A stretch of 64,000 bases of DNA from NCBI RefSeq assembly GCF_900090045.1, contig NC_041779.1, positions 496,001 to 560,000 on the forward strand, given 5' to 3'. Both the position numbers and the translations under genes were made by a program. This stretch comes from Plasmodium malariae. Its lineage: Eukaryota > Apicomplexa > Aconoidasida > Haemosporida > Plasmodiidae. The notes under the pieces were generated by a model. That model was not told where the DNA came from. It made no database searches and worked only from the letters and a program-made list of their open reading frames with translations. Of this stretch, positions 6,832 to 9,800 are shown piece after piece; the first letter of the stretch is position 1, and each line of letters begins with the position of its first letter.

Positions 6832-9800
6832 TTATATTTTTTTTATCTTCCATGTTTTATTATACAAAAAAGGATCAAATATTTGTCTTGAGCTATCTCG
6901 TCTTAACTTTTTATTTATAGCAGGTAATACATATTTAATTTTTCTTTTTGTTCTTAATTCATATCTTTTGATATGCGTATTTGCTAAATTAAATTCATCA
7001 TATTTTCTATCATTCATGGAAGGAGATATGTCATTATTATATATGGGTATATGTGAATTATGTACATTTTCTAAAAATAAAGTAGTAGCATTGCTTTCGT
7101 AGTATTTTTGTTTGTTTAGTGTCCTTTTTTTTTTCTTTTTTTTTTTTATTTCTTCAACTCCTTTTTTCTGGCTTAGTTTCTTTTGTGTTTTCATTTTTCC
7201 CACTGCAACGCTGTTGCTAAGCCTGTTTCGTTTTTTCTCATTTTTATTTTTGATTTTTTGCTTATCTGTAGCTGATGATGGTGGTTTAGCACTACTTCCC
7301 TTAGAAGATATGTTGTCTATGTCCTTTCTCGAAAAAAGAGGATTATATGAAACCTCTTGAAGAACAGCATTAACATGATTTGTATTTTCACAAACCGAAG
7401 TAATACTACACATGTTACTCTCAACGTTGGAAGAATTATCTAAATTATTCTCATTATACCAGTTTTTCAAACTATTAGAATTAAAATGGGTGTCTCCGCT
7501 TTTTGTATTCGTTAATACTTGATCTGTCTTTTGCACGTCTCTCACCTTTTGTTTGTCTCTTGTTCTTTTTGCCTTTTTTCCCCCTTTTCTTTTCATTTCT
7601 TTGTCTTCCTCCCTTTTTGCTTCCCTTTTTTCTTCTCTTCTTTTCTCTCTTTTTTTTTCCCTCCTTTGCTTTCTCCTTTGCTTTCTCCTTTGATGCCTCT
7701 TATTGTGCATATAGCCTATACGATTTAAAGGGTAATCAAGCCCAGTGTATGGAAGCAAGGAAGGATTTATGTCTATGTCAATGTAGTTAGCAGGCAATGA
7801 GTTATTCAATATATTTTTATAATTTACAATTTTGTATAAGTTATCATAATGATACTTATTGTAAGTAGCGAATTCAGAGTTCATTTTTTCCTTTTTCCTT
7901 TTTACACAGTTAGAAGTTATTTCTGAAATGAATGCGGAAGGAGGAGGTGCATAAATCGAATGTACATTGGACGAAAAAGAATTTAACATATTTCTTTTTT
8001 TCTTGTGATAGTTATTTTTCAAGTTTAATAAATTTTTATCAGAAATTTTGTTGCATTTTTTCAAATCTATATAGTAGTACCCCCCTGACATTCTATCGTT
8101 ACTACATCTTTTTTTTAAGGTGTAAGTACTGTAGTCCTCAACATTACCACTGTTAGGCATCAATTCGTTGCATCTGATTAGGCTATTATTACCAATATTA
8201 CTGTTATTATTGTTATTACTTTTATTACTGTTATTATTGTAATTGTAATTGTTATTATTATTATTATTATTATTATTATTATTATTATTATTATTATTAT
8301 TATTATTATTATTATTATTATTATTATTATTATTATTATTATTATTATTATTATTATTATTATTATTATTATTATCATCATCATTATCATTATCATTATT
8401 ACCATTATTTCCATTATCGTTATTGTTTATAGTTTCGCTGCTATCATTAACGCCCCATAATTTTTCCCCAAGTAATGAAATACTCTCTTGTATATTCGTT
8501 TCGTCATCGGCGCACCCATTTTCGTAATCAACCAAGGCGTTTTTGTAATTACTGTAAGGATCCATTTGTCTGCTTAAATTTGTTCCCCACATTAAATATT
8601 TAGATTTATTATGCTGCATATCGTTAAAATTAAACTTTTCATAATTATCTTTTGATGCATAAATAAAAGGAGACACCTCATCAGTATTCCTCTGTTTTCT
8701 TAACAACAATTCGTTGTTTAAGAAATCGTTTCTTTTGCTTAAGCCAATTAAAGCACTATATTTGTCTCTCCTATTATTTTTTAAGTACATTTCAGAAAGA
8801 ACTCTGTTATCCCTTTTGTATGCATTATTAACTTGACTACGTTTGAAATTTTCCAAATAATGGTCCGGTTCACTACACATATGATACGTACTTTCTACTT
8901 GGTCATTATAGTTATAATTATAATCATCTTTTATGTTATTATAATCATCTTTTATGTTATTATAATCATCTTTTATGTAATTATAATCATCTTTTATGTT
9001 ACTATAATTATTTTTTATATTAATGTTCATAAAAGGATTGCCTATACGTCTATTATTTATAGTCTGTTCATATTTCCTTATATAGTTTTTAAAAGATTCA
9101 TCCATGTCATATAAACATTTATTCTCCTCCTTAAAGTTATCCTCACTGAAATAAGTTCTCCTGTTTCTATCATTATTGTAAATAACAGAATGTCGAATGT
9201 CTTTGTTTTTTCTTCTTCCTTTTTTTTCCTCTATTTTGGACGAATTTTTTATTTTCTCATAATAACAACCAGTGTTGGAATCATTTACTTGCTCGCTATA
9301 TATATTAGTGTTTTTATTTACGCTATTCATAAAATGTCCATTTACCATATTCCTTGGAATAAATGAATTGCATATGAAATGTGCTTGTTCATCTTGAGCG
9401 CTATATTTTTCATTATGTAGGTCGCTCTCTTCGTTGTGTAATATTCTCTCCAAATCATGTAGTTCTCTCTGTTCATCATGTAGATTACTCCCTTCATCAT
9501 GCAGTTCTTTCTCTTCATTATTTAGGTTATTCCATTCATCATGTAGGTTACTCTCTTTGTCAAGTACGCTGCGCACTTCATCTTGGGAGTAACATTTTTT
9601 ATTGAAAAAGAGGGCATCATTCGTAATTTGCCGCAAATCATCATTCTTTCTATTATTCACTACAACATTTTCATAATCTTTTTTTTTTTGCATTAATATA
9701 TCTGATAAAATTTTATTTTCATGCGATAATTTAATTACCCTAATTTTATTTGAATCCATTGAATAATCAGAAAAGTTCAAGTCCGCGAAATTTTCTGAAG

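What the first reader, a model, noticed from the sequence alone, without database searches (positions are those of the whole stretch)
6898..6960. Shugoshin-type SGO motif at the C-terminus of an otherwise anonymous Plasmodium protein
Residues 1276-1292 (KRKIKYVLPAINKKLRR) fit the shugoshin C-terminal pattern (R-x-V/I-x-Y-x-x-P-x-L/I-x-x-K-L-R-R), 21 residues from the end. The same protein starts with a short coiled coil and has a long disordered middle, the usual plan of this fast-evolving family. If right, it is a candidate centromere cohesion protector in a malaria parasite, where such proteins are easily missed by full-length searches. The motif is seen; the function is inferred.
Basis: partly seen in the sequence, partly recalled or inferred. 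Interest (0 to 1): 0.82.

Follow-up and report, generated by a model that had tools for sequence, protein, structure and literature searches.

The report
Possible shugoshin in a malaria parasite
An uncharacterised malaria-parasite protein ends in a short motif, conserved in the Plasmodium relatives found, that closely resembles the chromatin-binding tail of shugoshins, the proteins that keep sister chromosomes together at the centromere; the match is real but short, so it is a good candidate and not a proven one.

Summary
The core Y-x-x-P-x-[LIM]-x-x-K-[LM]-R-R is in 7 of 7 family members found, next to the best conserved stretch of a fast-drifting protein. Pfam Shugoshin_C is the only model hit by the 34- and 47-residue tail pieces, always below its 23.3-bit cut-off: up to 15.2 bits here, 20.6 P. 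ovale, 21.2 P. relictum; a 122-residue piece and the whole protein miss it. A profile of published shugoshin motifs scores the P. ovale and P. relictum motifs above all of 60 million shuffled residues; this species' own motif is not significant across a proteome. Against: no Shugoshin_N match, mammal-only models do not cross-detect, and no gene for PP2A-B56, the usual partner, was found, although PTPA, a B''-type EF-hand domain, separase and a kleisin domain were. Verdict: plausible divergent shugoshin, about 0.6, function untested. Ten literature searches listed no Plasmodium shugoshin paper; supplementary tables could not be read.

The parts
6832..10773 (-). ORF of 1313 aa (stop codon included), candidate Plasmodium shugoshin, uninterrupted
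   Evidence: homologues of 859-1125 aa in P. ovale wallikeri, P. relictum, P. chabaudi adami, P. vinckei (2), P. yoelii
6898..6939 (-).
   Evidence: Pfam Shugoshin_C sub-threshold hits; profile of published shugoshin motifs; core in 7 of 7; coordinates checked
6835..6897 (-). C-terminal tail DSSRQIFDPFLYNKTWKIKKI, residues 1293-1313, almost invariant in the homologues found; most of the best conserved 25-residue window (1288-1312, 94% mean pairwise identity)
10624..10725 (-). N-terminal conserved segment, residues 17-50 (IISFYEDIINEMKCSYNNLYDTVIILKTKIDDIE), predicted helix, candidate coiled coil
   Evidence: 70% mean pairwise identity; helix 12-56 in the P. yoelii model, low pLDDT
9664..9801 (-). 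Second conserved segment, residues 325-370 (SSENFADLNFSDYSMDSNKIRVIKLSHENKILSDILMQKKKDYENV), acidic or serine stretch followed by a predicted helix; alternative candidate for the coiled coil
   Evidence: 65%; helices 310-316 and 318-340 of the P. yoelii model, low pLDDT
7747..7842 (-). Conserved segment, residues 978-1009 (NLYKIVNYKNILNNSLPANYIDIDINPSLLPY), no counterpart recognised
   Evidence: 73%
8431..8505 (-). Conserved segment, residues 757-781 (DETNIQESISLLGEKLWGVNDSSET)
   Evidence: 54%

Best explanation
The gene most likely encodes a divergent Plasmodium shugoshin: a largely disordered adaptor with a short helical, probably self-associating, N-terminal segment and a basic C-terminal SGO motif. 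Proposed working: the C-terminal motif docks on centromere-proximal chromatin through the phosphorylated C-terminal tail of histone H2A, and the rest of the protein carries effectors that guard centromeric cohesin or correct spindle attachments during mitosis or zygote meiosis. Shown: the motif, its conservation in the homologues found, the general plan at low model confidence, and that one H2A in this genome keeps a phosphorylatable residue (LLPKKS). Inferred: chromatin docking, self-association, effector binding, centromere location. Since no PP2A-B56 gene was found, the effector would have to be something else, for example a PP2A-B'' holoenzyme, PP1 or an Aurora complex.
For: Core motif in 7 of 7 family members. 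Shugoshin_C is the only Pfam model of 24,736 hit by the 34- and 47-residue tail pieces scanned: 14.1 and 15.2 bits here, 20.6 P. ovale, 21.2 P. relictum, 13.6 rodent type; 10 of 10 true shuffles gave no hit; a human-type SGO1 piece of equal length gave 41.5 bits. Profile built from 16 published motifs (Table 3 of PMC5134366, section 10 read): 24.0 bits P. relictum and 22.8 P. ovale against a maximum of 22.4 in 60 million shuffled residues; the known motifs score 15.6-32.8 when left out in turn. The nearest published motifs, by eye, are those of S. pombe (Sgo1 INYAIPSLRTKLRR, Sgo2 VNYALPGLRTKLRR; P. relictum IKYALPSLNKKLRR). Position and plan fit the family description in PMC4301718 (passages read). 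One H2A ends NVLLPKKSQLK. A kleisin N-terminal domain and a separase domain are present in the genome.
Against: The Pfam scores lie below the 23.3-bit cut-off in every piece scanned; a 122-residue tail piece and the whole protein give no Shugoshin_C hit, and 1 of 7 whole proteins gives E 1.9. Three of nine hand-made scrambles of similar composition hit unrelated families, best E 0.0031, so the window's own E of 0.019 is within such noise. The window's motif, 19.5 bits, is expected 0.4 times by chance per 4 million residues and the rodent motifs, 17.7 bits, 2.2 times. In the genome-wide Shugoshin_C search the locus was not the scored candidate; a topoisomerase-like ORF scored 16 bits. A mammal-only model scores the family at -2.5 bits or lower, below its best decoys (9.2); a Plasmodium-only model scores the SGO1 set at 6.0 bits at best, decoys up to 7.6. 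hhalign of the two tail alignments: right register but probability 11%, P 0.0026. No Shugoshin_N match. No B56 found, no LxxIxE (B56-docking motif, recalled) at a shared place in the family, and only sub-threshold Bub1/Mad3 matches. Conservation peaks just after the motif.
Confidence: 0.6

Rival explanations
1. Convergent basic tail: KRKI...KKLRRDSS is a nuclear-localisation signal fused to a site for a basophilic kinase (R-R-x-S type, as for PKA, CDPK or Aurora; consensus recalled) on some other nuclear or cytoskeletal protein, and the resemblance to SGO is accidental.
For: KKLRRDSS is invariant in the seven and conservation peaks from there onward rather than at Y-x-x-P. A sub-threshold hit of 16 bits, taken as chance, exists elsewhere in the genome. 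Mammal-only models do not recognise the family. Scrambles of similar composition can reach E 0.0031 with unrelated Pfam families.
Against: Y, P, the L/I two residues after P, and the spacing to K-L-R-R are kept in 7 of 7, which neither an NLS nor a kinase site needs. The two best orthologue scores exceed all 60 million shuffled residues, and the shuffles kept local composition.
Confidence: 0.25
2. A Plasmodium-specific kinetochore, spindle or nuclear scaffold with its own origin that has come to carry an SGO-like chromatin-binding tail: it works partly like a shugoshin but is not one by descent.
For: Several conserved islands for which I know no counterpart in shugoshins, above all residues 978-1009 and about 331-355; no Shugoshin_N similarity; B56 not found.
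Against: Shugoshins in general keep only the two short ends (PMC5134366 and PMC4301718, passages read), so clade-specific islands are expected; nothing positive points to another family in the Pfam scans.
Confidence: 0.15

Closest known systems
Fission-yeast shugoshins Sgo1 and Sgo2 (motifs from Table 3 of PMC5134366)
   Same: C-terminal core: INYAIPSLRTKLRR and VNYALPGLRTKLRR against IKYALPSLNKKLRR (P. relictum) and IKYVLPAINKKLRR (window)
   Different: Plasmodium family members are 859-1313 aa with low-complexity stretches; the N-terminal part was not compared with the yeast proteins directly, only with Pfam Shugoshin_N, without a match; a conserved 21-residue tail follows the motif
Vertebrate SGO1
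   Same: Core Y-x-x-P-x-L-x-x-K-L-R-R near the C-terminus; predicted helix near the N-terminus; unstructured middle
   Different: Mammal-only and Plasmodium-only models do not detect each other above decoys; B56, with which Sgo1 works in model organisms, not found in this genome
Pfam Shugoshin_C (PF07557)
   Same: Only Pfam model hit by the 34- and 47-residue tails, over model positions 6-24 of 24 in three of the four 34-residue tail types
   Different: 13.6-21.2 bits against a cut-off of 23.3; the rodent-type tail matches positions 15-24 only; longer cuts lose the hit

Membership tests
Shugoshin | C-terminal basic SGO motif | tested here: inconclusive
   Core pattern 7 of 7; Pfam below cut-off in all pieces scanned and lost in longer cuts; two orthologues above all shuffles, the window's own motif not
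Shugoshin | N-terminal coiled coil (Pfam Shugoshin_N or a dimerising helix) | tested here: inconclusive
   Conserved predicted helix at residues 17-50 and a second in 325-370, low confidence; no Shugoshin_N match. Per PMC5134366 (passages) the N-terminal domain was also missed in several accepted plant and animal shugoshins
Shugoshin | Divergent middle, conservation confined to the two ends | tested here: inconclusive
   Mean pairwise identity 24%, ends 70% and 85%, but further islands at 325-370, 757-781 and 978-1009
Shugoshin | PP2A-B56 binding | tested here: inconclusive
   Binding itself untested. No B56 gene found by Pfam PF01603 or by a human B56 fragment; in the same mode PTPA, separase and a B''-type EF-hand domain were found; no genome known to hold B56 was available as a positive control
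Shugoshin | Binding to H2A phosphorylated by Bub1 | not testable with these tools
   One of two H2A-type genes keeps a serine, LLPKKS; the other is H2A-like without it; Bub1/Mad3 domain matches sub-threshold, 22.2 and 16.5 bits against 31.4
Shugoshin | Pericentromeric localisation and cohesin protection | not testable with these tools
   Needs tagging and knockout

The most novel reading that the evidence does not exclude
Malaria parasites keep a shugoshin although they have lost PP2A-B56: an SGO-motif adaptor that docks on phosphorylated H2A but recruits a different effector to guard centromeric cohesin, a rewired form of a guardian otherwise built around PP2A-B56.
Probability: 0.25. Interest if true: 0.78.

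Novelty: new member of a known kind. Interest (0 to 1): 0.56.

Why it matters
Plasmodium divides by fast closed mitoses with a strongly diverged kinetochore, and its zygote undergoes meiosis. REC8 is named there as a meiotic factor (PMC13376596, passages read), but no protector of centromeric cohesion turned up in my searches. A candidate whose tail occurs at one place in the genome makes the question testable: tag it, delete it, look at sister chromatids in zygote meiosis and male gametogenesis. If B56 is truly absent, it would also show that the shugoshin-PP2A-B56 pair can be uncoupled.

Tried and rejected
Whole-protein Pfam scan: nothing. A SseK_NleB hit at E 0.012 on a 122-residue tail piece, and F-112, Tic22, IL6, SNX17_FERM_C, SFV1_VP5, Csm1_N, RavZ_C, TSC22, HALZ and FlaC_arch hits on helical pieces, the best at E 0.0015, I take for low-complexity noise. 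Profile-profile comparison with the SGO1 tail set: right register, weak. The genome-wide Shugoshin_C hit on contig C12 lies in a topoisomerase-like ORF (named by eye from its sequence, not by a family search) and is taken for chance. A guess at the P. falciparum gene number by recalled synteny (PF3D7_0827200) found no paper and is not claimed. The gene was not found under another name, a weak test: that the P. berghei orthologue lies on chromosome 7 rests on the P. yoelii locus name and recall, and chromosome 8 in P. falciparum on recall. PBANKA_07 and PF3D7_08 identifiers do not occur in the main text of PMC12222016, PMC10499817 and PMC12092005; PMC10199041 was searched for PY17X_07 and PBANKA_07, and PMC13376596 for PBANKA_07 only, without a match. 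The kinetochore inventory PMC5579357 was seen in passages and its ortholog-detection section only; its figures and Dataset EV1 are not held here, so it may list a Plasmodium Sgo. The apicomplexan kinetochore paper sought by a recalled DOI is not held.

Limits: the protein database did not return the window's own protein, so orthologue coverage is partial; the two homologue searches stopped at Plasmodium. The 60-million-residue null includes shuffled blocks from the family itself, which makes it conservative. Cutting out the tail before a Pfam scan favours a hit; the ten shuffles control for composition but not for that choice.

Full report
What is there. The window lies on contig 5 (496001-560000) of an unnamed 33.6-Mb, 62-contig genome. 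That it is Plasmodium follows from the homologues; that it is P. malariae is my recollection of that genome's size and not a tool result. On the minus strand, 10773 to 6832, an uninterrupted ORF encodes 1313 residues. Residues 1276-1292 read KRKIKYVLPAINKKLRR (6898-6948) and 21 residues follow. The last 81 residues match one place in the held genome, this one.

Is it more than chance? These figures are post hoc. A less biased test used a profile built from the 16 shugoshin motifs of Table 3 in PMC5134366 (section 10 read), with block-shuffled Plasmodium sequence as null. The known motifs, each left out in turn, score 15.6-32.8 bits. The window's motif scores 19.5 (6 windows in 60 million shuffled residues reach it, that is 0.4 per 4 million), P. 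ovale 22.8, P. relictum 24.0 (none reach either; the null maximum is 22.4), and the rodent forms 17.7 (33 reach it, 2.2 per 4 million). So the window's sequence alone would not be convincing across a proteome; the family is, moderately.

Conservation. Two searches of C-terminal regions returned the same six Plasmodium homologues and nothing outside the genus (6 hits of 22 candidates; the same 6 of 54 candidates, one of them the query itself). The core Y-x-x-P-x-[LIM]-x-x-K-[LM]-R-R is in 7 of 7 family members and in 120 of 120 listed hits of a human SGO1 tail query (best 120 of 171, mostly mammalian, some unnamed, and selected by that very likeness). Over five family members (P0005 and P0006, both P. 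vinckei and close to P0004, left out) mean pairwise identity is 24%; the best 25-residue window is 1288-1312 (94%), then 977-1001 (73%), 19-43 (72%), 331-355 (68%) and 1263-1287 (64%). The protein thus has conserved ends, as shugoshins do, but also islands of its own, and conservation peaks just after the SGO core.

Family tests. Pfam Shugoshin_C is the only model hit by the short excised tails: 14.1 and 15.2 bits for the 47- and 34-residue cuts of the window's tail, 20.6 (P. ovale), 21.2 (P. relictum) and 13.6 (rodent type), against a cut-off of 23.3. A 122-residue cut and the whole protein do not hit it; of seven whole proteins one does, at E 1.9. A human-type SGO1 piece of equal length gives 41.5. 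Ten true shuffles give no Pfam hit; of nine hand-made scrambles three hit unrelated families, best E 0.0031, a warning about how far such E-values can be trusted. In the whole-genome scan one candidate was scored, and it was not this locus: a topoisomerase-like ORF gave 16 bits over 12 positions. Models built from the SGO1 set alone or from Plasmodium alone do not find each other above decoys, and hhalign gives the right register with probability 11% and P 0.0026. Shugoshin_N is not matched by the whole proteins or the pieces scanned. AlphaFold2 on the P. yoelii orthologue with six sequences gives helices at 12-56 and 318-340, and others outside the islands discussed (for example 752-795, with the best local confidence, and 1001-1012 in the last residues); the SGO core is coil; 6 of 1013 residues reach pLDDT 70. 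The second helix (KIRIINLVNENKILSKMLNKKKKHYENI in P. yoelii) may be the better candidate for a coiled coil; this is my reading of the sequence.

The pathway around it. In the same genome I found a kleisin N-terminal domain (E 4.9e-10), a sub-threshold kleisin C-terminus, separase (E 5.9e-15), PTPA (E 9.5e-38, in several pieces) and an EF-hand domain that I recall as typical of PP2A B'' subunits (E 3.5e-14). I did not find a B56 subunit, either with Pfam PF01603 or with a human B56 fragment; no genome known to hold B56 could be searched as a control. Toxoplasma has a B'/PR61 subunit (PMC10269777, passages; that PR61 is B56 is recalled), and a Toxoplasma study says that the conservation of the two PP2A complexes in the phylum differs (PMC11377541, section 14 read). 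Of two H2A-type genes, one ends NVLLPKKSQLK, with a serine at the place which I recall is phosphorylated in yeasts; the other is H2A-like without it. The Bub1/Mad3 domain gives only sub-threshold matches. If the protein is a shugoshin, its docking mark may be available, but its usual phosphatase partner seems missing.

How it most likely works. Shown: the motif, its conservation, the plan at low model confidence, the H2A serine. Inferred: the tail docks on phosphorylated H2A near centromeres, the N-terminal helix self-associates, and an effector other than PP2A-B56 protects cohesin or corrects attachments. I put 0.6 on a divergent shugoshin, 0.25 on an accidental basic tail (NLS plus kinase site) and 0.15 on a genus-specific scaffold with an SGO-like tail.

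Literature. Ten searches were made: shugoshin with Plasmodium, with Apicomplexa and with Toxoplasma (13, 4 and 7 papers, all listed), Sgo1 or Sgo with Plasmodium and kinetochore (11 and 1, all listed), and five related ones (in 18, 44 and 55 the list shows 15 of 56, 20 of 99 and 15 of 34). No listed title or abstract opening is about a Plasmodium shugoshin. Of the 13 papers I opened two, in passages (PMC5579357 and PMC12706138), and one section of the first. The library is open-access only and supplementary files could not be read; PMC5579357 includes Sgo in its inventory and may hold a Plasmodium entry. The claim 'undescribed' is limited to these searches.

Noticed in passing
window 8248-8373, minus strand: Run of 42 asparagines (residues 801-842) within the same protein; the longest run in the six homologues is 4. 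A typical Plasmodium low-complexity insertion.
   Followed up: yes
window 8917-8997, minus strand: Four tandem 7-residue units with IKDDYN (residues 593, 600, 607, 614) in the same protein; none in the six homologues.
   Followed up: yes
window 2196-5246, minus strand: Neighbouring 1016-aa ORF with aspartate/glutamate repeats and an RS-like stretch (RSTSKNRGRRRDRSRGRGRS); no Pfam family at E 0.001.
   Followed up: partly
window 12068-49655: Neighbour ORFs with Pfam matches: EF-Tu-type GTPase (IF-2-like by its GHVDHGKTT motif, recalled), DEAD-box helicase, WD40 protein (RACK1-like, recalled), Ufd2 with U-box, SPRY protein, alpha/beta hydrolase. Useful for finding the syntenic P. falciparum gene.
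   Followed up: partly
G000 (own genome): No PP2A-B56 subunit found although PTPA, a B''-type EF-hand domain, separase and a kleisin domain were; may be a lineage loss worth checking on its own.
   Followed up: partly
L002 and L003: Sub-threshold Mad3/Bub1 N-terminal domain matches (22.2 and 16.5 bits) in ORFs of 891 and 1783 aa; L002 could be a very divergent checkpoint protein or a chance hit.
   Followed up: no
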